Shown one piece after another: positions 49,117 through 59,975 of a stretch of DNA of 64,000 bases (position 1 is the stretch's first letter; every line of letters starts with the position of its first letter). The DNA comes from Francisella adeliensis. GTDB taxonomy: Bacteria > Pseudomonadota > Gammaproteobacteria > Francisellales > Francisellaceae. The stretch spans positions 248,001-312,000 of the forward strand of contig NZ_CP021781.1 of NCBI RefSeq assembly GCF_003290445.1, given 5' to 3'. The translations under genes and the position numbers were made by a program. The notes below the pieces were generated by a model. The model was not told where the DNA came from. It ran no database searches and saw nothing but the letters and a program-made list of their open reading frames with translations.

Positions 49117-49537
49117 GGGGGCGAATATGGTTTCGACATGAATGTCAAAGTCTTAGGTGCATGCCGAGGAAGTACAGTACCTCGCTAATAACAGTACAAT
49201 GCCTATATAACTGGCAACAAAAAAGCAAACCGCGTAGCGGCTAACGACAACAGCTTTGCAGCTGTTGCTAAAGCTGCCTAGTCTAGCTTAATAACCTAGA
49301 AACGCACGGGTATGATGGGCTTTCTTATGAGGCTGTCTATACATCCGTTCATCTTTTACATAAGATGGTCATTTGCTTTAAGTCTGGAAGTAAATGACTG
49401 TACTAATCAGACTCGCTAACTTTTACCCTGACTAACTGGGGAAAAGCCAAGCTAAACACTAAATGAGTTGGTCTAAGCATGTAGATCCGAGGATGAAGAG
49501 TTTATGGACGCGGGTTCAAGTCCCGCCGCCTCCACCA
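49117..49537 (+). ncRNA. ssrA: tmRNA (SsrA)
   Basis: Ribosome-rescue RNA of 421 bases. The tRNA-like ends pair: GGGGGCG (49117-49123) with CGCCTCC, then ACCA up to 49537; the T-arm GGGTTCAAGTCCC is present. The tag frame runs GGC at 49213 to TAG at 49279-49281 and codes 22 residues starting GNKKANRVAAND and ending AAVAKAA. Pseudoknot stems surround it. The 3' end is the attachment site for an integrated element, and the last seven bases TCCACCA are supplied at this junction only. Confidence 0.97.
49520..49530 (+). repeat. attL core in ssrA
   Basis: GTCCCGCCGCC at the tmRNA 3' end recurs exactly at 55556-55566 and 57314-57324. It marks the left edge of the integrated satellite. GCTATTTCAAGCAGTTTCA follows at 49541 and again directly after the middle copy. 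Confidence 0.85.
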
Positions 49538-49624
49538 CAAAGCTATTTCAAGCAGTTTCATAAAGCCCCACAAACCCTTTAAAAACAATGATTATAGCCA
49601 TTTTTATGGTTTTATACAGTCCCA

Positions 49625-49701
49625 ATACATACCAATAAAGCCCTTGTAAATATACATACTATAATACATACTAGATACATAATCACTAAATGAGTATGTA
49701 T
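49625..49701. repeat. Candidate integrase arm sites, left end
   Basis: ATACATACC/T occurs at 49625-49633, 49652-49660 and 49664-49672, and its complement AGTATGTAT at 49693-49701, just before int. Matching ATACATACT copies lie at the right end (55489-55497; 57235-57243 and 57247-57255). This is the pattern of arm-type sites for a tyrosine recombinase. Confidence 0.5.
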
Positions 49702-49703
49702 TT

Positions 49704-50954
49704 ATGGCTATTAAAATCACTGATAGTAAGGTAAAGAGCTTAAAATACAAAGATATAAAAAGTATGTCTTTAGGCGATAGATTAAACATAAAAATAGATA
49801 AAAACGATAATAAGTATTTTTTCTATCTATACACTATCAACGGCAAAAGAACTACTATAGGTATTGGAAGCTATCCCGCAATAAGTCTAAAACAGGCGAG
49901 AGATGAGGCGTTTAAATATAATCAGATGTTAGCAAGTGGTAAAGACCCGAAATTAGAAAAAGCTAAAGCAAAGTATCAAGATGGCAATATTTTTGAAATA
50001 GTCGGAAATAAAGCACTAGAAACTAAACACCCTAGCAAGCCACACGGTTGGAAAAGTGAAGAGGTTTATACTAGGAATTTATCTATATACAATAGATTTA
50101 TACTACCAAGCTTAAAAACTTTTGATATAAAAGAAATTGAGCCATACCAAATAGCGGGGATACTAGAAGCTACTACACCTAGCTATCAAAGAAAAATCAA
50201 AAACTTACTAAATATTATTTTCAACTATGCAGTTGGTAAAGGTATTACTAGATACAACATTGCTAGAGATATACAAGCGGAAAAAGAAAGCCCTAAAGGT
50301 TTTGAATTTATACACCCGACAGAAGACAGATACAACTTTAGTAAATTACTAAATGATATTGATACCTACAAAGGACAATATAATACAGCCATAGCTTTAA
50401 AACTAGCCGTATTAGTCGGTTTTAGACCAAGTAATATAGTAGGTATGAAATGGGAAGACATACAAGAGGCTAATATAGATGGTAAAAAAATACCTTTTGT
50501 ATTTATATCCGCTGATAATATGAAAATGAGTAGAGATTTTAGACAGCCATTAAGTAAACAGGCTTATAAATTACTAATGGAAATAAAAGAATATAACGGC
50601 GGTTTTGAGTATGTATTTCACTCATTAAGTAAGAAAAAGCATATTACTATTGAGAGCCTATCAAAGGCTTTGAGAGATACACTAGCCTACAATGGTACAG
50701 ATAAACCAAAACAACATACACACGGCTTTAGAAAGTCAGTTAGAACATATATTAGCACTATCAGAAGTAAATATAACTGGAGTGATGACAGTATAAGAAT
50801 GATATTAAGCCATAGTAAAGAAAATGCTATAGATAACATCTATGATAAAAACGATTTTATAGCAGAGCGTAGTCAGATGTTACAGCTATGGGCTGATTAT
50901 GTAGATGATGTTAAAGCTAATAGTAATATTATCAATATGGATAATGTAAGTTAG
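49704..50954 (+). CDS. int: P4-type tyrosine integrase of the ssrA element
   Basis: The 416-residue recombinase has an N-terminal DUF4102-like arm-binding domain (GKRTTIGIGSYPAISLKQAR), a core-binding SAM-like domain, and a catalytic domain with Arg in LAVLVGFRPSNIVGMKW, HGFRKSVRTY (HxxR), LSHSKENAIDNIYDKND giving the His and the Tyr nucleophile. It starts 167 bases after the tmRNA end and points away from it, the usual layout for elements in tRNA/tmRNA genes. It should catalyse integration at ssrA. Confidence 0.94.
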   Translation: MAIKITDSKVKSLKYKDIKSMSLGDRLNIKIDKNDNKYFFYLYTINGKRTTIGIGSYPAISLKQARDEAFKYNQMLASGKDPKLEKAKAKYQDGNIFEIVGNKALETKHPSKPHGWKSEEVYTRNLSIYNRFILPSLKTFDIKEIEPYQIAGILEATTPSYQRKIKNLLNIIFNYAVGKGITRYNIARDIQAEKESPKGFEFIHPTEDRYNFSKLLNDIDTYKGQYNTAIALKLAVLVGFRPSNIVGMKWEDIQEANIDGKKIPFVFISADNMKMSRDFRQPLSKQAYKLLMEIKEYNGGFEYVFHSLSKKKHITIESLSKALRDTLAYNGTDKPKQHTHGFRKSVRTYISTIRSKYNWSDDSIRMILSHSKENAIDNIYDKNDFIAERSQMLQLWADYVDDVKANSNIINMDNVS

Positions 50955-50964
50955 ATTTTAAAGG

Positions 50965-51024
50965 TTAGCATTGTCTAGGTTCACTACCGAAAGAACACCG
51001 CCCAAGTGTTTTGGCAATGCTTAA
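50965..51024 (+). other. Structured region after int
   Basis: TTAGCATTG (50965-50973) pairs with CAATGCTTAA (51015-51024, one bulge), enclosing an inner hairpin AACAC/GTGTT (50994-50998 with 51006-51010). It lies between int and the next gene and may be a terminator-like or regulatory RNA structure. Confidence 0.35.
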
Positions 51025-51053
51025 TATTTTGGGGATACTTTGGGGGTATTGGT

Positions 51054-51815
51054 TTGTCAAATAACAAAGCTAAGTTTTTATTATCAAAGAAATATTTAAA
51101 TGTTAAAGATATTAGAGAAGTTTTATTATTGCATGACATAGATTTAGATATTGAGCAAATTATAGATTGGATAGAACAAAGTCAAAAATCATATATAAAG
51201 CCAAGAGATTGGACTAGTTTAGATGTAAGTAATTTCTATCATACCGCTAAAGGTTTTCAACATTTAACGCTAACAGATATGCTAAATGAACAAAAGGATG
51301 ATTTTTTAAAGGCAAATTATACTAAAGATGATGAAACTTTTAATAACAGTCATTTAGAGATAGCTTACATTTTCAAGATAGCTGATTATATAGCCAATGT
51401 TACTGAATATACAGAATGTCCCGAACACCTTAGAGAATATAGCTATAAAGATAATATTTATTTAGAAAAAAGAGTATCTACTTATGATGAGCTAGCTAGT
51501 ATTTTTTATACAAAATCTAGTTTTATCAAAGAGTATTTAGATAGTTTACAAGACCACCAACCAAAGTCAGCTACTAATCAAGATGATAGCTATAAATATA
51601 GTGAAGCTTTGAACCCATACAATGATATCATCTGGGCTTTTGAAAATGAAAGTAAAGAGTACGAAAAGTACAAAAATACCATTACAAAAGAAGTTATTAG
51701 AGATGAGTTAAGAATTAATTATAAAAAGCTACTATCTAGCAATGAAAAAGCAGAGTTTGTAGCTGATTTAATAATGGAACACTATAATATACCTAAAGGT
51801 AATCGTAAGAAATAG
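51054..51815 (+). CDS. Unknown protein of the satellite
   Basis: I take TTG 51054 as start because GGGGG (51042-51046) is at right distance and the residues upstream are Trp/Gly-rich and improbable. The 253-residue protein is soluble and acidic, largely helical: VKDIREVLLLHDIDLDIEQI, then SHLEIAYIFKIADYIANVTE, and a Lys-rich C end (EFVADLIMEHYNIPKGNRKK). No motif I recognise. Position between integrase and AlpA, where satellites carry regulators or interference genes, is the only hint. No start ATG fits well, so the N-terminus is uncertain. Confidence 0.6.
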   Translation: MSNNKAKFLLSKKYLNVKDIREVLLLHDIDLDIEQIIDWIEQSQKSYIKPRDWTSLDVSNFYHTAKGFQHLTLTDMLNEQKDDFLKANYTKDDETFNNSHLEIAYIFKIADYIANVTEYTECPEHLREYSYKDNIYLEKRVSTYDELASIFYTKSSFIKEYLDSLQDHQPKSATNQDDSYKYSEALNPYNDIIWAFENESKEYEKYKNTITKEVIRDELRINYKKLLSSNEKAEFVADLIMEHYNIPKGNRKK

Positions 51816-51821
51816 GTTTTA

Positions 51822-52011
51822 ACCTCCGAACTTTCAAAGCTATATATATCAATACTTTTAGCCATACTTCCGAACTATATTTTAATAAGCTTCCGATACT
51901 TCCAGAATATTTTACCCTTAATTTTAACCGTATCATTTATAGCAGATACCAACTAGAACCACTCAAAAAAAAGCGGTTTTAAAAGGTACTAATCTTTAGT
52001 TGCTGCAGCAA
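51822..52011. promoter_or_regulatory. Operator-like repeats upstream of the AlpA gene
   Basis: The 243-base gap holds CTCCGAAC (51824), CTTCCGAAC (51867) and CTTCCGATACTTCCAGA (51890), a repeated CTTCCGA word, and a perfect 12-base palindrome TTGCTGCAGCAA at 52000-52011, 48 bases before alpA. These look like binding sites for regulators of the satellite's replication genes. Confidence 0.4.
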
Positions 52012-52058
52012 TTAAAACTAAACATTAATTGATAACTAAAGGAAGAGGTTATAAAGAT

Positions 52059-52238
52059 ATGAAAATACTAAGACTACCACAAGTTATAGAGAAGACAGGA
52101 ACATCAAAAACAACTATCTATAGATGGATAAATGCTAATCAATTCCCGAGACCAATCAATCTTACCCATGCTAGTGTAGGTTGGTTGGAAGCTGATATAA
52201 ACGATTGGATACAGTCAAAAATAGAAGCGAGGGGGTAG
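52059..52238 (+). CDS. alpA: AlpA-like excisionase/transcriptional regulator
   Basis: A 59-residue winged-helix protein: KILRLPQVIEKTGTSKTTIY, then RWINANQFPRPI and GWLEADINDWIQSK. This is the AlpA family (MerR-like fold) found in P4-type phages and satellites, where it activates int or excision. ATG 52059 has a GGAAGAGG site upstream; the frame extends to 52029. It is 3 bases from the primase gene and leads the replication operon. Confidence 0.88.
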   Translation: MKILRLPQVIEKTGTSKTTIYRWINANQFPRPINLTHASVGWLEADINDWIQSKIEARG

Positions 52239-52241
52239 ACA

Positions 52242-53138
52242 ATGAATACGAGTAAATTTAATGGTTTTGTATCAGATTTAGGGTACTCATTGCCTAATAA
52301 CTTTAATTATAGCATAGGTATTGGCGAGCTTAAAAGGTTTAAAGATACTAATAAAAATAAACATAATGTAGATTTATGGCTACAGAATATTGATAATAAT
52401 ATCTTTGTCTTTGGCGATTGGAAAACAGGCGAGAAATACAATTATATAGATAATGACAATCAATATAATAGCTATGAGAAAAGAGCCTATAACAGCCAAG
52501 TATTGCAGCAACAAAAAAAAGCAGAGATGCAGAGCAAACAAGAGCTAGCAAGTAAGTTAGAGAGTTATTATTTATCACTATCAAATGCAGATGATAACCA
52601 CCCGTATTTAGTCGCTAAAGGTATAAAAAGCCATGAAGCTATAAAACAGGATGGCAATAAACTTGTAATTCCTTGTATTGGTATTAATGAGCCTTTTAAG
52701 GCTAAGCTACAGAGTATACAAACTATATTGCCTAATGGCTTTAAACAATTCTATAAAGGTGCTAATGCTAAAGATAGTTTTTTAATACTAAATAAGTCTA
52801 CTAATGAAAAGTTTATTTTTGTGGAGGGACTAGCAACTGGTTTAAGTGTTTTAAGGTTCGCACAAAGTCAAAAAGTAGACCGCTTATACAGTATAATAGT
52901 TTGTTTTAATTGTAATGGTTTAAAACCTATTGTTAGTTATTTTTATAGCTTATATCCTGAAGCTGAATTAGAAATATGGGCTGATAATGACAAAAGCGGG
53001 GTAGGGCTGAAAAAAGCTCAACAAGTTAAAGAAGTGTTTCCAAGTGTATATATCAATCCCCCACCGCTAACAGATGAGGAAAAACAAAACGGCTTGTCAG
53101 ATTGGAATGACTATATACCGACTATAGGAGAGTTTTAG
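52242..53138 (+). CDS. Toprim-domain primase-like protein
   Basis: The 298-residue protein contains, after an N-terminal part with a weak P4-primase-like pattern (HPYLVAKGIKSHEAI near residue 115), a Toprim domain: FIFVEGLATGLSVLRFA (catalytic Glu) near residue 193 and ELEIWADNDKSGVGLKKA (DxD) near residue 247, ending GLSDWNDYI. This arrangement is that of phage and plasmid primases such as P4-alpha N-terminal and RepB-like proteins. It probably starts replication from the downstream iteron region together with the DUF3987 ATPase encoded 3 bases later. Confidence 0.85.
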   Translation: MNTSKFNGFVSDLGYSLPNNFNYSIGIGELKRFKDTNKNKHNVDLWLQNIDNNIFVFGDWKTGEKYNYIDNDNQYNSYEKRAYNSQVLQQQKKAEMQSKQELASKLESYYLSLSNADDNHPYLVAKGIKSHEAIKQDGNKLVIPCIGINEPFKAKLQSIQTILPNGFKQFYKGANAKDSFLILNKSTNEKFIFVEGLATGLSVLRFAQSQKVDRLYSIIVCFNCNGLKPIVSYFYSLYPEAELEIWADNDKSGVGLKKAQQVKEVFPSVYINPPPLTDEEKQNGLSDWNDYIPTIGEF

Positions 53139-53140
53139 CA

Positions 53141-54607
53141 ATGAGCAATATTTTAGAAATGCAAAAAGAAATAGCAGAGGTTAAGCCTTTACCATTGCCA
53201 AGCGATAAAAAACAGCTACCAAGGTTTAATATTGATTGTTTACCTAAAGTTATAGCTGATTATGTAAGTAGTTTAGCTAATGCACATCAACAGCCAATAC
53301 AGTATATAGCTACATCTAGTTTAGTTAGTATAGCGGGATTGCTAGGAAATAAAGTTTGTTTAGATATTGATGATAGAAAAGCCTATCCTATTCTTTGGGG
53401 TATGCTAATAGGGGATAGTGGAACAGGGAAAACCCCTAGTATCAATGAACCTATGAAACCAATTAAAGAAATAGATAAACAGCTTTTAGATGATTATTTA
53501 AAAGACTATGCTAATTATCAAACAGCATTAGAGTTATACGAAATTGAGCTAAAGAAATTAAAGGCTAAGCTTAAAGATTGTAAAGATGAGCAAAAGCAAA
53601 GTATCAAAGGGGAAATAGAAGCATTTAAGAAGCTAAAACCAATAAAGCCATATTCTAGGGAAATATGTATAAATACAGCTACTAAAGAAGCCTTACTAAG
53701 TCAGTTAGCAGATGACAGCCCTAACGGTTTAATACTAGAAATTGATGAGTTGATGGACTTTATACAGTCAGTTATTAGAGCTGAAAAAATAGAAGACCAT
53801 AAACTATATGTAGAGGCTTACAATAATGGAAGTTTCAAAAGCAAAACAATATCTAGGGGTACTCAATATATAGATAATGTAACAATATCTATTATTGGCG
53901 GGGTACAAACTCAAAGACTGATAGATTTTACTAACAAATATAATGGTAGTGGCTTACTAGCTAGGTTTCAATTAATCCCTATAGCTGAAAAATACCAAAG
54001 AGAATATAAAGAAGCTAAATTAAGTTTTGATATAAAAAGTAGCTATGAGAACCTACTAAACAGCTTAAAACAAATTCCACAAAGGTTTAATATAGTTGAT
54101 AATGAAAAAGTCAAAACAGAGCCTAAAAAGTACAACTATACAAGTGAAGCCAAGAGATTATATATTGACTGGTTTAATAATATTGAAAAAGTAAAAAATG
54201 AGAGTGGGCAGAGTGATTTAATGATAGAGTATCTAGGTAAAGCTACTAATACTTTTCATGCTTTGGCTTTAATATATCATCTAGCAGATAATCAAGATAA
54301 CTACAATATAAACAAAGAAGTAGTACAAAAAGTTATAGCTACCTTAGAGTATTTTTATGATTGTGCTGATTATCTCTATGGCTATAATTTCAACAAATCT
54401 TTAGATTTAGCTAAAAAGATAGTTGATATAAAATCTAAACTGAACAACAAAAAAGGCTTTAGTATTGGCGACATTACTAGACCAACTAGTTATAGAAAGC
54501 TAGATAAAGAACTAGTACAAGAGGCTTTAGATATACTAGAGCAATATCATCATATTATAAAAACTGATAAGAAAGGTACTAAATATTATAAATATCATTG
54601 GCTATAA
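53141..54607 (+). CDS. DUF3987-family ATPase, replicative helicase-like
   Basis: The 488-residue protein has Walker A in MLIGDSGTGKTPSINEP near residue 93, a coiled-coil insertion (about residues 115-170), and Walker-B-like GLILEIDELMDFIQS near residue 203, with IIGGVQTQRLIDF as a sensor strand; the C-terminus is a winged-helix segment. DUF3987 proteins accompany primases in mobile elements and are thought to be helicases. With the Toprim protein it forms a two-piece counterpart to P4 alpha or PICI Pri-Rep. Confidence 0.82.
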   Translation: MSNILEMQKEIAEVKPLPLPSDKKQLPRFNIDCLPKVIADYVSSLANAHQQPIQYIATSSLVSIAGLLGNKVCLDIDDRKAYPILWGMLIGDSGTGKTPSINEPMKPIKEIDKQLLDDYLKDYANYQTALELYEIELKKLKAKLKDCKDEQKQSIKGEIEAFKKLKPIKPYSREICINTATKEALLSQLADDSPNGLILEIDELMDFIQSVIRAEKIEDHKLYVEAYNNGSFKSKTISRGTQYIDNVTISIIGGVQTQRLIDFTNKYNGSGLLARFQLIPIAEKYQREYKEAKLSFDIKSSYENLLNSLKQIPQRFNIVDNEKVKTEPKKYNYTSEAKRLYIDWFNNIEKVKNESGQSDLMIEYLGKATNTFHALALIYHLADNQDNYNINKEVVQKVIATLEYFYDCADYLYGYNFNKSLDLAKKIVDIKSKLNNKKGFSIGDITRPTSYRKLDKELVQEALDILEQYHHIIKTDKKGTKYYKYHWL

Positions 54608-54628
54608 TATCTCTATTTTCTAATTTCT

Positions 54629-54908
54629 TAACACATCTAACACATTAACACATTAACACATTAACACATTAACACATTAACACATTAACACATCTACCCC
54701 TAACACCCTTATTTTAAAGGCTTTGGCGTGTGTTACACTCTTAACACATAAAAAAGCAGATATAACACAAAACTATAAAATGGTAAGGTTTAGACAAGGG
54801 TATAAATAGTTGTGTTATTAACTGTGTTAGCAGTTACCACAACTGAAGCCCTTATGTATCAACGCTTTTAGCTATGTTGTGTTAATTGTGTTGGTTGTGT
54901 TAAGAAAA
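54629..54908. repeat. Iteron-like octamer repeats, candidate replication origin
   Basis: TAACACAT occurs at 54629-54636 and then as seven head-to-tail copies from 54638 to 54693. Further TAACACA words lie at 54742 and 54763, and TGTGTT(A) in the opposite direction at about 54811, 54823, 54878, 54886 and 54895. The 396-base gap between the ATPase gene and the terminase gene has no protein gene. Two arms of oppositely oriented initiator sites around an AT-rich centre resemble the origin (ori/crr) of P4-like satellites. Confidence 0.7.
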
Positions 54909-55003
54909 ATAAAAAAACACGATATCTACATCTAAAATTAGAGTATCATTACTCAATATAATTAAATGTTATAATTATATAAAAATAGATAATAATTGAT
55001 GAT

Positions 55004-55432
55004 ATGAATAAGCTAACATCTAAACAATTAGAGTTTTGTAAGTATTATTTGCAAAGCGGTTGCATGACAGAGGCATATATACAAGCTTATGACACCGAAA
55101 ACATGAAAGACCAAACAATACATAATGAAGCTAGTAAGCTACTCAAAAATGAGAAAGTAGCCGAGTTTATAGAGAGCGTACAAAAAAGAGAAATGCTAGG
55201 TACATTTAACACTAGACAAAAGTACTTAGATAAACTTGATGATATTATAGATAGTGATGATAGTAGCATGAGTGAAAAGATACAAGCTATTAATACAGTC
55301 GCTAAACTCAAACAATGGGATAAAAGAAAAGCAGGCTTACAAGTAGACTTTCAAGAGGAAAGCGATTTACTACAAAGAAGCCTAGCAACTGATATAGGTA
55401 GTTTTCATAGCTACCCTAGAAAAGATATATAA
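55004..55432 (+). CDS. terS: Small terminase subunit (TerS)
   Basis: The 142-residue protein starts NKLTSKQLEFCKYYLQSG, the N-terminal helix-turn-helix DNA-recognition domain of Terminase_2/TerS, followed by AYIQAYDTENMKDQTIHNEA and an oligomerisation region; the C-terminal tail ends GSFHSYPRKDI. TerS selects DNA for packaging. There is no large terminase, portal or capsid gene, so its presence suggests redirecting a helper phage's packaging. A second, internally deleted copy is at 57001-57178. Confidence 0.88.
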   Translation: MNKLTSKQLEFCKYYLQSGCMTEAYIQAYDTENMKDQTIHNEASKLLKNEKVAEFIESVQKREMLGTFNTRQKYLDKLDDIIDSDDSSMSEKIQAINTVAKLKQWDKRKAGLQVDFQEESDLLQRSLATDIGSFHSYPRKDI

Positions 55433-55488
55433 ACACCATTATTTTACCATTAGCTTTATGGTAAGATTATAAGGGTAAAAATAATAAG

Positions 55489-55566
55489 ATACATACTATA
55501 TCAAAATATAGCAAAAAAAATCTATATAGCACGGTGGTTGTAGGCGATAGTTTATGTCCCGCCGCC
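55489..55566 (+). repeat. Middle attachment site (right end of satellite 1 / left end of satellite 2)
   Basis: Ends in the core GTCCCGCCGCC (55556-55566). The 150 bases before the core are almost the same as those before 57324 (GCACGGTGGTTGTAGGCGAT in both), and the bases after it (GCTATTTCAAGCAGTTTCAC) match those after the ssrA copy. It is therefore a right end joined to a left end. The rest of the 352-base gap 55433-55784 has no gene. Confidence 0.8.
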
Positions 55567-55784
55567 GCTATTTCAAGCAGTTTCACAAAGTCCCGCAAAC
55601 CCATTTAATCAAGGTTATGACTGTTTTTTTATACAACATACTATGCAATATACTACTAAAAATAGTGCAACAAATGATGCAACTACAAAAAAATATAAGA
55701 GTTGATTAACCTATATAAATTACTTAAAGACTAATTGCATATAATTTGTTACGATTAAAAACTAGTGTTTAAAGAATGATTTAA

Positions 55785-56210
55785 ATGATTAAACTAATTT
55801 CAAGTTCAGATAATTGGGAAGTTTGTCAAATAGAGAAAAAAAGCATTTGGAGAGAACCAGAAGCTAAGCATTTTGATGGGTTTAATCTTTCCAAAAAGAA
55901 AGGTTTTTTCTCATCTGAAAACAAGAGGTATTTTAGGAGACAAGCTATAAGAGTGGTTACAATCAATGAAGATAATAGTAAATCTCTAGTAGGTACGGCA
56001 GGAGCTTCACTTGCAGGAGGCTTATTGCTTGGTGGTGTGGGTATGCTTGCAGGGGCTTTAGCTGGAGGTAAAAAAAAGACTATCAGAGTTGGTGTTGAAT
56101 TTAATGATGGTAAAAAAATTGTTTTTGAAGAAAACTCAAAAGACCAACCGTTTATAGCTTTTTTAAAATTTGCAGAAGAAATACAAGCAACAAAAACTCT
56201 AGATTTTTAG
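55785..56210 (+). CDS. Glycine-zipper protein of unknown function (cargo)
   Basis: The 141-residue protein has an aromatic/charged N-terminal half (WEVCQIEKKSIWREPEAKH), a glycine-zipper hydrophobic stretch at about residues 71-94 (GTAGASLAGGLLLGGVGMLA) that could span or insert in a membrane, and a beta-rich end (IRVGVEFNDGKKIVFEE). No family recognised. It lies in the decayed second satellite, where it and the LysM gene are the only intact genes, so it may be cargo of benefit to the host. Confidence 0.6.
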   Translation: MIKLISSSDNWEVCQIEKKSIWREPEAKHFDGFNLSKKKGFFSSENKRYFRRQAIRVVTINEDNSKSLVGTAGASLAGGLLLGGVGMLAGALAGGKKKTIRVGVEFNDGKKIVFEENSKDQPFIAFLKFAEEIQATKTLDF

Positions 56211-56280
56211 GTATTAACAAATAAACTTCTTATTCTGAAGAGTTATAGTTGAATATTCGAGATTACCCTGTTTTTACACC

Positions 56281-56832
56281 TTATTTATAAGTTTCATGCT
56301 CATACCATCCTTCAACATAAGTACCTCTACTACCAGTTTCTTTTAGGTCGCATCCAAAATTTAATTTAGTTCCTTTAACAAGCCCTGAAACGCTTTTAGG
56401 TTTATCCCACATTATGTCAAGCTCTCCATTTCTTGATTTTATAGAGTTTAAACATTGACTCATTGAACTAAATTCACCGTATAAGTTTTCTTTAATTTTT
56501 TCTTTCTTATTAACTTTGCGATAATCACTTATACATCTTTTAATTTTGGCAGTACTATTCGATATATTAGAATAATTATTTTCTAAATCTTGCTTTGATG
56601 TTGGTAGTATTAATTTGTCGCCTTTATTTATTTTGTTTTTAACTATTTCTGGATAGTTATTCTTATTGATATTTATTATATTATTTGTTCTCTCAAAAAT
56701 AGAGGTTTTTGGTATACTATTTTCTTTTCCTAGATTATAAAGGAAATCTCCATCTTTAACTGTATATGTACAAAATGAAAAAGCGAAGCTTGATTCTAGT
56801 AATACTAGACAAAATATTATCATTTTTTTCAT
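56281..56832 (-). CDS. Exported LysM-domain protein (cargo)
   Basis: From ATG 56832 the 183-residue protein has a signal peptide (KKMIIFCLVLLESSFAF), then one LysM domain (YTVKDGDFLYNLGKENSIPK to KINKGDKLILP) for peptidoglycan binding, and a C-terminal domain with four cysteines or so (RCISDYRK, MSQCLNSIK, NFGCDLKE) and GTYVEGWYEHET at the end. A TTG at 56844 is an alternative start. It is convergent with the glycine-zipper gene within the second satellite. Could alter the cell wall, for instance to limit phage, but that is speculation. Confidence 0.72.
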   Translation of the reverse strand: MKKMIIFCLVLLESSFAFSFCTYTVKDGDFLYNLGKENSIPKTSIFERTNNIININKNNYPEIVKNKINKGDKLILPTSKQDLENNYSNISNSTAKIKRCISDYRKVNKKEKIKENLYGEFSSMSQCLNSIKSRNGELDIMWDKPKSVSGLVKGTKLNFGCDLKETGSRGTYVEGWYEHETYK

Positions 56833-57000
56833 ATTATCGTTCAAAAAAATAAATAGACTTTAAACATAAACCATGGTGCTATTTAAATCAAGTATCCATA
56901 TTAAAATTTTATTTTCCTTTACACTTTTATATTAAAAATCAACCAACCTAACAGCTGATATAATTACTAGTATTAAATTTGTTCTATTATTAATCTATGG

Positions 57001-57178
57001 CTACTAAACTAACATCTAAGTAATTAGAGTTTTGTAAGTATTATTTGCAAAGCGGTTGCATGACAGAGGCATAAGAGCAGGCTTACAAGTAGACTTTCAA
57101 GAGGAAAATTATTTAATACAAAGAAGACTAACAACTGATATAGGTAGCTTTCATAGCTACCCTAGAAAAGATATATAA
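57001..57178 (+). pseudogene. Truncated second terS copy
   Basis: Sequence begins CTAACATCTAAGTAATTAGA, nearly identical to the terS start at 55010 but with a TAA in place of the CAA codon. It matches to CATGACAGAGGCAT, then jumps to AGCAGGCTTACAAGTAGACT near the terS end and follows it to the stop at 57178. About 250 bases are missing. The 170 bases before it (56833-57000) show nothing but AT-rich DNA. Confidence 0.88.
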
Positions 57179-57234
57179 ATACCATTATTTTACCATTAGC
57201 TTTATGGTAAGATTATAGGGGTGAAAATAATAAG

Positions 57235-57324
57235 ATACATACTAATATACATACTATATCAAAATATAGCAAAAGAAAGCTATATAGCACGGTGGTTGTA
57301 GGCGATAGTTTATGTCCCGCCGCC
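57235..57324 (+). repeat. Right attachment end (attR) of the tandem satellite
   Basis: Repeats the right end of satellite 1, including two ATACATACT arm-like words and GCACGGTGGTTGTAGGCGAT, ending in the core GTCCCGCCGCC at 57314-57324. Chromosomal sequence (AAAAATTATTCAAATAAG) follows. The TCCACCA that completes tmRNA at the left is missing here. Confidence 0.8.
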
Positions 57325-57376: not shown

Positions 57377-58750
57377 ATGAACAAAACAAACTTTTCAGAT
57401 CTTTCTTTATCGAAAGAAATGCTTCATAACCTTAATGAAATTGGCTATAAGCAAATGACTTCAGTACAAGCAAGCACACTGCCACATATATTAGAAGGTA
57501 GTGATGTGATTGCTCAAGCAAAAACAGGTAGTGGTAAGACAGCTGCTTTTGGTATTGGGCTTTTGGCTAAACTACAAGTTAAAAAATACCGTGTACAAAC
57601 ACTAGTTTTATGTCCAACAAGGGAGCTTGCTGATCAGGTAGCTAAAGAGCTGCGTGCCTTAGCTAGATTTACGCATAATATCAAAATTCTAACGCTTTGT
57701 GGTGGTGTGGCTTTTCGTCCACAAGAAGAATCTTTGCGTCATGAAGCTCACATAATAGTAGGTACACCAGGGCGAGTGCTAAAACACCTTGATAAAAACA
57801 CTCTAAACTTAAAAGATGTCGATACTTTGGTTTTTGATGAAGCTGATAGAATGTTAGATATGGGCTTTATTGATGATATTGAGAAAGTTTTAACATACAC
57901 TCCTAAAAATAGACAAACCCTACTTTTCTCAGCAACTTATACTGATGAAATCATTGCTATAAGCGATAAAGTTCAAAGCAATGCTATAAGTGTAAAAACT
58001 ACAGATATAGAAGTTGCCAATAAAGTTACTGAAGTATTTTATGAAGTAAAGATTGCTAGCAAACTCAAAACTTTAATTAATGTACTTGGTACTTATCAGC
58101 CAGAAAATGTAATTATATTTACAAATACTAAAGTAGAAGCAAATGAGCTAGCACAAAGCTTAAAAAACCACAATATAGACACTTTAGCAACACATGGTGA
58201 TCTTGAGCAGTATGAAAGAAATGATGTGCTTGTGCAATTTGCTAATAAAAGCTGTCGTGTACTTATTGCTACAGATGTTGCTGCTCGTGGATTAGATATC
58301 AAAGAGCTAGCAATGGTTATAAATTATGATATTCCTTATAATGAAGAAACTTATACTCACAGAATAGGCAGAACAGCTAGAGCTGGCGAGGAAGGTGTAG
58401 CTATATCTATCTATAATTCAAATAGATCTTTTAAAGCTCTTAATTATCAAAATGAAACACGTAGATATGAAGACTCAAGTGCTTTAGAAACTACTCCTGA
58501 CTTTGCGATGAAGCCGATATATAAAACTCTTGTAATTGAAGCTGGTAAAAAAGATAAGCTCCGAGCAGGAGATATATTAGGTGCTTTGACTGGTGATGTT
58601 GGAATTGCAGGAAAAGCTATTGGTAAAATAGATATTTATGATAAACAAAGTTATGTAGCTATTGATCGAGCCTTAATTAATTCAGTTCATAAAAAACTTT
58701 CTAATGGTAAGATTAAGGGTAGAAAATTCCCTGTGTGGATTTTGAAATAG
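57377..58750 (+). CDS. dbpA: DbpA, DEAD-box RNA helicase
   Basis: The 457-residue helicase has Q-motif (GYKQMTSVQASTLP), motif I AQAKTGSGKT, PTRELADQV, DEAD, SAT, and the second RecA domain with ATDVAARGLDI and HRIGRTARAG. The C-terminal 75 residues (GDILGALTGDVGIAGKAIGK) are the DbpA RNA-binding domain, which targets hairpin 92 of 23S rRNA during 50S assembly. It is the first chromosomal gene after the satellites. Confidence 0.94.
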   Translation: MNKTNFSDLSLSKEMLHNLNEIGYKQMTSVQASTLPHILEGSDVIAQAKTGSGKTAAFGIGLLAKLQVKKYRVQTLVLCPTRELADQVAKELRALARFTHNIKILTLCGGVAFRPQEESLRHEAHIIVGTPGRVLKHLDKNTLNLKDVDTLVFDEADRMLDMGFIDDIEKVLTYTPKNRQTLLFSATYTDEIIAISDKVQSNAISVKTTDIEVANKVTEVFYEVKIASKLKTLINVLGTYQPENVIIFTNTKVEANELAQSLKNHNIDTLATHGDLEQYERNDVLVQFANKSCRVLIATDVAARGLDIKELAMVINYDIPYNEETYTHRIGRTARAGEEGVAISIYNSNRSFKALNYQNETRRYEDSSALETTPDFAMKPIYKTLVIEAGKKDKLRAGDILGALTGDVGIAGKAIGKIDIYDKQSYVAIDRALINSVHKKLSNGKIKGRKFPVWILK

Positions 58751-58782: not shown

Positions 58783-59439
58783 TTACAAATCATCAAATTT
58801 TATAACTTTTACCGCTCTACCAAGTATTACAGCACTAGAAGGATATTTTATGTTTTCTTTGCCTTGGAAGTTTGAGTTGAGTGGCATTAGACAAAGTTTA
58901 CCATCATTTTTGTATAGCAATTTGACTGTTGCTCCTTCAGAGTTTTGAGCAACTACAACTTTACCGATTAGACTATTTATATCAATTTGGTTTGGATCGA
59001 CTATTATAGATTCGCCTTCTTGGAGTGAATACTTAAGGTATTTGTCTGTAAGTATTTGTCTATCTGAGTGATCAAAAGTCATACTTTTGCCTGTAATTTC
59101 GAGTAAATAACCATTTTTGGGAATTATATTTGCAGGTAGCTCCATATGTCCTATAGGATCTGTATCTGTGGAAGATTCTGTAAATTCACCTGCTTGAACA
59201 TAGTCTAAAATTGGAACTTGTATAATTGGCGTGGTTGATTCTTGGATTACATTTTTCGTAAGATTTATCTGACCCAAAATACTCATTACTTGTTCGTGTC
59301 TACTCATAGTAGGACTTGAAATACCAGCTATCCAGTTGCGTATAGCTTTAGTGCTTATATTTAGCCTTTCAGCTAATGCTTTTTGTGTCATCCCAATAGA
59401 TTTAAGTTTGGGCTTTAACTCGGTTGTATAATCAAACAT
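58783..59439 (-). CDS. LexA/CI-like repressor with S24 peptidase domain
   Basis: The 218-residue protein has an N-terminal XRE helix-turn-helix (MTQKALAERLNISTKAIRNW) and a C-terminal S24 peptidase: Ala-Gly cleavage site in DYVQAGEFTE, nucleophile Ser in ITGKSMTFDHSD and general-base Lys in SEGATVKLLYK. Such proteins self-cleave on contact with RecA filaments, releasing SOS or prophage genes. It is divergent from an unknown small gene with operator-like DNA between. It may be an old prophage repressor kept as a stress regulator. Confidence 0.88.
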   Translation of the reverse strand: MFDYTTELKPKLKSIGMTQKALAERLNISTKAIRNWIAGISSPTMSRHEQVMSILGQINLTKNVIQESTTPIIQVPILDYVQAGEFTESSTDTDPIGHMELPANIIPKNGYLLEITGKSMTFDHSDRQILTDKYLKYSLQEGESIIVDPNQIDINSLIGKVVVAQNSEGATVKLLYKNDGKLCLMPLNSNFQGKENIKYPSSAVILGRAVKVIKFDDL

Positions 59440-59600: not shown

Positions 59601-59975
59601 ATGTTTAGAAAAAGTATTTTAGTCGCAAATAATGAAATGAGACTTTTGTTGTCAGTAATTAAATCTAACTACATATCAGACAATAAAAATGCTCTTCAAG
59701 AAGTAAATAAGAATTGTGTAGCAAATCGTATTGATGATGAAAATATAAAATCATATGTGATTAATTGTTGGGATAACTTAGAGGATAAAATAGGTTTCGA
59801 AGTAACTTTACTAGAAAATAATTGTAAGAGAAGTATTATAAATCGTTTGTATAATAGATCTCGTGATTTGAATTTTGTGATAAAAACTAAATCAGATGTA
59901 GTTTCTAAAGAATTACAAGATAATATCAAAAAAACATCTAATATTAACATAATTATGAAAGAGTTTGTCTTATAG
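59601..59975 (+). CDS. Small protein of unknown function divergent from the S24 repressor
   Basis: The 124-residue protein is cytoplasmic and basic, with RKSILVANNEMRLLLSVIKS, FEVTLLENNCKRSIINRLYN and a Lys/Asn-rich C end. It has a strong AAGGAAG ribosome site. Divergent layout with a LexA/CI-like gene suggests it is repressed by it and induced on DNA damage. I do not recognise it. Confidence 0.62.
   Translation: MFRKSILVANNEMRLLLSVIKSNYISDNKNALQEVNKNCVANRIDDENIKSYVINCWDNLEDKIGFEVTLLENNCKRSIINRLYNRSRDLNFVIKTKSDVVSKELQDNIKKTSNINIIMKEFVL

What the first reader, a model, noticed from the sequence alone, without database searches (positions are those of the whole stretch)
49538..55566. PICI-like phage satellite integrated in the tmRNA gene of a Francisella
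Between two copies of GTCCCGCCGCC lie int, an unknown gene, alpA, a Toprim primase-like gene, a DUF3987 ATPase, an iteron array and terS, with no capsid, tail, portal or large terminase. That gene set and order are those of phage-inducible chromosomal islands, which use their own TerS to redirect packaging in a helper phage. Active phages are rarely reported in Francisella, so an intact-looking satellite would imply a helper phage in this lineage.
Basis: partly seen in the sequence, partly recalled or inferred. Interest (0 to 1): 0.88.

Follow-up and report, generated by a model that had tools for sequence, protein, structure and literature searches.

The report
Phage satellite tandem in Francisella tmRNA
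At the end of the tmRNA gene of a Francisella bacterium sits a 6 kb genetic hitchhiker with its own integration, copying and DNA-packaging-specificity genes but no virus shell; relatives of it occur across the genus, so it most likely spreads by borrowing the particles of Francisella phages that are still largely unknown.

Summary
Confirmed, with additions. From 49520 to 55566 lies a 6.0 kb element in the tmRNA gene: int, an orphan gene, alpA, a Toprim primase-like gene, a DUF3987 helicase, an iteron origin, and terS. No structural, portal or large-terminase gene is present. Islands with this backbone, intact or decayed, occur in 10 of 17 Francisella species genomes, at tmRNA, tRNA-Leu or other sites; some carry Bro-N or Rha regulators after alpA, as Gram-negative PICIs do. 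terS is under purifying selection (dN/dS roughly 0.1). The host genome has no detectable large terminase. One relative (G002) carries both a satellite with an 80%-identical TerS and a complete siphovirus-like prophage whose TerS is only a distant homologue (about 29%). That speaks against 'end of a degenerate prophage' and shows a possible helper type, not a proven partner. Best reading: a minimal PICI-type satellite, a new lineage of a known kind. Mobilisation is untested, and right-hand att copies lack the last nucleotides of the tRNA end, so present excision competence is uncertain.

The parts
49117..49537 (+). tmRNA gene (ssrA), integration target; its 3' end is intact at attL
   Evidence: ARAGORN
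49520..49530 (+). att core copy 1 (attL side), GTCCCGCCGCC, inside the tmRNA T-arm/acceptor
   Evidence: exact match, 0.00 expected
49704..50954 (+). int, tyrosine integrase 416 aa
   Evidence: PF13356, PF00589; 63% to the integrase at tmRNA in G001, 69% to the integrase at tRNA-Leu in G016
51054..51815 (+). orphan gene between int and alpA; fast-evolving, seen only in Francisella; possible excision co-factor like the int-linked genes of PICMIs (inference)
   Evidence: no Pfam/PHROG/PADLOC match of note; homologue 43-45% in G016 at the same position; dN/dS about 0.47
52059..52238 (+). alpA, excisionase/activator
   Evidence: PF05930 1.4e-19
52242..53138 (+). Toprim primase-like protein, 298 aa
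   Evidence: phrog_2249 primase 3e-27; Toprim_3 8.7e-4, below Pfam cut-off
53141..54607 (+). DUF3987 (YfjI-type) helicase/ATPase with Walker A GDSGTGKT, 488 aa
   Evidence: PF13148 1.3e-57; 86% and 72% homologues in G016 and G015; invariant Walker residues
54628..54907 (.). putative origin: TTAACACA direct iterons (array 54628-54693) plus inverted TGTGTTA copies
   Evidence: all 10 TAACACA and 5 of 6 TGTGTTA copies of the 64 kb window lie here; same repeats after DUF3987 in relative L055
55004..55432 (+). terS, small terminase 142 aa
   Evidence: PF03592, phrog_51; helical model with best fold matches to viral TerS; dN/dS about 0.09-0.14
55556..55566 (+). att core copy 2 (junction between the two elements)
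55567..57324 (+). decayed second element in tandem: left-end repeat 55567-55608 (88% to 49542-49583), two cargo-like genes, terS remnant, right end
55785..56210 (+). small protein with a glycine-rich segment, unknown; cargo of the second element
   Evidence: phrog_20920 (unknown function) 1.2e-9
56281..56844 (-). unknown protein; cargo of the second element
   Evidence: ORF; no family
57003..57178 (+). terS remnant with a large internal deletion and an early stop
   Evidence: alignment; stops
57314..57324 (+). att core copy 3 (outer attR)

Best explanation
It is a minimal PICI-type phage satellite integrated at the 3' end of tmRNA, beside the wreck of an earlier related satellite. Proposed cycle (inferred from gene content): a Francisella phage enters or is induced; a phage signal raises AlpA; AlpA with Int excises the element; the Toprim primase and DUF3987 helicase replicate it from the iteron origin; its own TerS binds a packaging site on the element and directs the helper's TerL to fill helper capsids with satellite DNA; it then integrates into the tmRNA site of a new host. 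Shown here: gene content and families, att repeats, tandem, origin repeats, purifying selection, genus-wide family, absence of structural genes and of a detectable TerL in this genome. Inferred: induction, excision, replication, packaging and transfer.
For: Families and order; three att cores with 0.00 expected; decayed tandem copy sharing right end and terS ends; origin repeats confined to one 280 bp stretch and conserved in a relative; relatives with the same backbone at separate sites in the genus, with a Bro-N/KilAC antirepressor (L052) and Rha (L053) next to alpA, matching the published Gram-negative PICI zones (PMC10111431); terS dN/dS 0.155/1.72 and 0.243/1.78 (dS near saturation), other core genes except the orphan below 0.3; TerS fold; own genome negative for three TerL Pfam families; G002 has both a satellite with 80% TerS and a full prophage with TerS-TerL-portal-capsid.
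Against: No excision, circle, particle or transfer data. No recognised interference or capsid-size gene. The C-terminal tail of the satellite TerS proteins is not shared with the one prophage TerS found, so a TerL partner is not identified. At 6.0 kb it is smaller than typical PICIs. The right att copies lack the tRNA-end nucleotides, so simple excision might not restore tmRNA.
Confidence: 0.85

Rival explanations
1. A satellite that is now locked in place: genes still open, but att damage or lack of a helper prevents mobilisation in this strain. This is compatible with PICI-type origin and differs only on present activity.
For: The junction and outer att copies lack the TCCACCA that follows the core in tmRNA; no TerL in the genome; the neighbour copy is decayed.
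Against: All six genes are full length and constrained between species; similar short att ends are seen at other satellites in the genus, so they may be normal for this integrase group; helpers need not be resident.
Confidence: 0.35
2. One end of a degenerate prophage that lost its structural genes.
For: Terminase_2 TerS is a phage protein family; decayed DNA adjoins.
Against: Relatives in several species have the same compact int-alpA-replication-terS order without structural genes; the Francisella prophage found here has a TerS only about 29% identical in a head operon; IMG/VR gave no close TerS in a phage.
Confidence: 0.04
3. An integrated plasmid-type island whose replication genes matter and whose terS is incidental.
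For: Iterons plus replication proteins resemble plasmids; DUF3987 homologues occur on a few plasmids at 22-30%.
Against: No relaxase or partition gene was recognised among its six proteins; AlpA and attachment at tmRNA; terS is among the most constrained genes; int and TerS have no close plasmid match.
Confidence: 0.08

Closest known systems
Gram-negative PICIs (EcCICFT073 and relatives; PMC6092414, PMC10111431)
   Same: Specific att site, int and alpA at the left, replication genes then origin, optional terS, no structural genes; relatives here carry Bro-N after alpA as in the published four-zone layout; tandems are also reported
   Different: 6.0 kb only; separate Toprim and DUF3987 proteins instead of a fused pri-rep; no interference gene recognised; Francisella; helper unknown
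PICMIs of Vibrionaceae (PMC10803314)
   Same: Minimal size, int, an unknown gene next to int, alpA, primase, no capsid remodelling
   Different: PICMIs sit next to fis and have no terS; this sits in tmRNA and has terS
P4-like satellites
   Same: Integrase with arm domain, AlpA/Vis-like protein, primase and helicase functions, repeat-based origin
   Different: None of the P4 capsid-sizing or transactivation families matched; TerS present
Francisella phage vB_FhiM_KIRK (PMC7924643)
   Same: Known inducible Francisella prophage
   Different: A complete myovirus with GpA-type TerL and Nu1-type TerS, a different terminase type from this Terminase_2 TerS

Membership tests
Gram-negative PICI | Unique, specific attachment site with flanking repeats | tested here: met
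   tmRNA plus repeated 11-mer core, 0.00 expected
Gram-negative PICI | int and alpA at one end, genes mostly in one direction | tested here: met
Gram-negative PICI | Primase/replication initiator followed by an origin | tested here: met
   Toprim protein plus DUF3987 helicase followed by iterons; met by sequence, function not shown
Gram-negative PICI | Packaging determinant (terS or helper cos/pac) | tested here: met
   terS, PF03592 and fold
Gram-negative PICI | No capsid, tail, portal or large terminase | tested here: met
   no such family among element ORFs
Gram-negative PICI | Phage-interference genes | tested here: inconclusive
   none recognised; the orphan gene is unassigned
Gram-negative PICI | Phage-dependent induction and packaging into infectious particles | not testable with these tools
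   needs experiment
PICMI | Integration next to fis | tested here: not met
   integrated at tmRNA
PICMI | No terS | tested here: not met
   terS present; PICMI description from PMC10803314
cf-PICI (capsid-forming) | Own capsid genes | tested here: not met
P4-like satellite | P4 sid/psu/delta-type genes | tested here: not met
   no match among element proteins in Pfam or PHROGs

The most novel reading that the evidence does not exclude
A genus-wide Francisella satellite lineage whose TerS carries its own conserved C-terminal tail, implying an undescribed Francisella helper phage group, and whose integrases leave right-hand junctions with small deletions that start about 6-8 nt before the tRNA 3' end, so that simple loss of the island would damage tmRNA or tRNA and the island is hard to lose.
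Probability: 0.12. Interest if true: 0.75.

Novelty: new member of a known kind. Interest (0 to 1): 0.5.

Why it matters
Very few Francisella phages are described. A constrained, genus-wide satellite family predicts that helper phages with a Terminase_2-type packaging system circulate in this genus and gives sequence bait for finding them. The literature searches run here found no report of phage satellites in Francisella, within open-licence papers only.

Tried and rejected
Scan of genome contigs with the TerS profile gave no relatives, not even the Francisella ones, so that collection may lack them. IMG/VR with the TerS profile gave only 28-35% relatives, one of them the G002 prophage; with the integrase, none. 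CRISPR test: the Cas12a repeat pattern has no match in any of the 17 genomes, so spacer targeting could not be tested. FddR-type operator GTG-N11-CAC: 7 in the window against 4.4 expected, one at 54824 inside the origin region; not above chance. phrog_2 hits in open frames of about 600 aa in most genomes, including a weak one in the host, look like a conserved chromosomal ATPase and were not counted as TerL (inference). An empty site with the same flank could not be shown, because the downstream dbpA gene had no match at the threshold used in the other 16 genomes; most relatives show a tmRNA followed by other DNA.

Full report
OBSERVATION. The window is bases 248001-312000 of a single-contig 2.05 Mb genome. 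ARAGORN places tmRNA at 49117-49537. The core GTCCCGCCGCC occurs three times on the + strand, at 49520, 55556 and 57314, against 0.00 expected in shuffles. Between the first two lie six intact co-directional genes and an iteron array: int, an orphan, alpA, a Toprim primase-like protein, a DUF3987 helicase and terS, with the family evidence. The Toprim call rests mainly on PHROG primase families (3e-27); the Pfam Toprim score is below its cut-off. No structural gene is present.

TANDEM. The third closes a second, decayed element (55567-57324). It begins with a 42-base repeat of the left end (88%), keeps two unrelated small genes, a terS with its middle deleted and a stop in its start region, and a right end 95% identical to that of the intact element. 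So the tmRNA site has been used at least twice.

ORIGIN. All 10 copies of TAACACA in the 64 kb window lie at 54629-54763, and 5 of the 6 TGTGTTA copies lie at 54729-54896. The same repeats follow the DUF3987 gene in the relative at G016 (L055). This is an origin by position and pattern; replication was not tested.

FAMILY. In the 17 genomes of the genus, TerS relatives occur in G001 (68%), G002 (80%), G012 (61%) and G016 (45%), and DUF3987 relatives, intact or broken, in nine other species genomes. Maps show int, an orphan, alpA, primase and helicase and, in four, terS at the far end, beside tmRNA (G001, a second island in G016, decayed G013, a tiny remnant in G010), beside tRNA-Leu (G001, G002, G004, G015, G016) or elsewhere. 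G001's tmRNA island has a Bro-N/KilAC antirepressor and an AAA_25 helicase instead of DUF3987; G002's has a Rha-type regulator; a gene with an Mrr-type nuclease domain lies in G015's island region. A Bro-N zone after alpA is part of the published Gram-negative PICI layout (PMC10111431).

SELECTION AND FOLD. Counting substitutions by codon gives dN/dS of about 0.09 and 0.14 for terS against G002 and G001, 0.17 for int, 0.26 for the primase, 0.18 for the helicase, 0.22 for alpA and 0.47 for the orphan; dS for terS is near saturation, so these ratios are rough. The TerS model (mean pLDDT 80, five-sequence alignment) matches viral small terminases (best TM 0.64); the PDB top hits are also small terminases but not significant by E-value.

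HELPER. The host genome has no match to GpA_ATPase, Terminase_3 or Terminase_6N. G002 carries a complete siphovirus-like prophage (TerS, TerL, portal, head morphogenesis, scaffold, capsid, tape measure, tail), the same sequence as IMGVR_UViG_2516143106_000001 by its TerL. Its TerS is about 29% identical to the window TerS and lacks the conserved C-terminal tail of the satellite proteins. G014 has a GpA-type TerL. So the TerL partner is not identified; the shared tail points to an unsampled phage group (inference).

ATT ODDITY. In attL the core is followed by TCCACCA, the tRNA end, then CAAAGCTATTTC. The junction at 55566 reads core-GCTATTTC, and the outer copy reads core-AAAAATTATTC, both without TCCACCA. 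Right-hand copies at G010, the G016 tmRNA island, the G002 tRNA-Leu island, G001 and G015 also miss 1 to about 12 nt starting at nearly the same place. Decay, selection against excision, or an imprecise right junction are all possible. If crossover is within the core, excision would give tmRNA without its 3' end. This is the main doubt about present mobility.

COMPARISON. Against Gram-negative PICIs every sequence-testable defining feature is met except a recognised interference gene; induction and packaging are untestable here (PMC6092414). PICMI, capsid-forming PICI and P4-like membership fail on tested features (PMC10803314). It is therefore filed as a minimal PICI-type satellite, a new Francisella lineage of a known kind.

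Noticed in passing
window 49531-49541, 55567, 57325; L053, L056, L064, L066, L052: Right-hand att copies lack 1 to about 12 nt starting 6-8 nt before the t(m)RNA 3' end, at seven junctions in six genomes.
   Followed up: partly
window 58783-59439 (-) and 59601-59975 (+): S24 peptidase with a divergently transcribed small gene just beyond the tandem; the arrangement matches FddR, the phage-derived DNA-damage regulator of Francisella (PMC13148647). Orthology was not tested.
   Followed up: partly
window 57377-58750: DbpA-type DEAD-box helicase directly after the outer att; no match at E 1e-100 in the other 16 genomes of the genus set.
   Followed up: partly
G002:C1 about 642000-689000 (L070, L062, L071): Complete siphovirus-like prophage in a Francisella, same as IMGVR_UViG_2516143106_000001.
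   Followed up: partly
L052:14840-15595: Bro-N/KilAC antirepressor in the G001 tmRNA satellite, directly after alpA; possible means of acting on helper repressors.
   Followed up: no
plasmid records NZ_CP123519.1, NZ_CP123517.1, NZ_CP123540.1: Arsenophonus nasoniae 8-12 kb 'plasmids' with an annotated small terminase (42-46% over 59 aa to this TerS); they may be satellite episomes.
   Followed up: no
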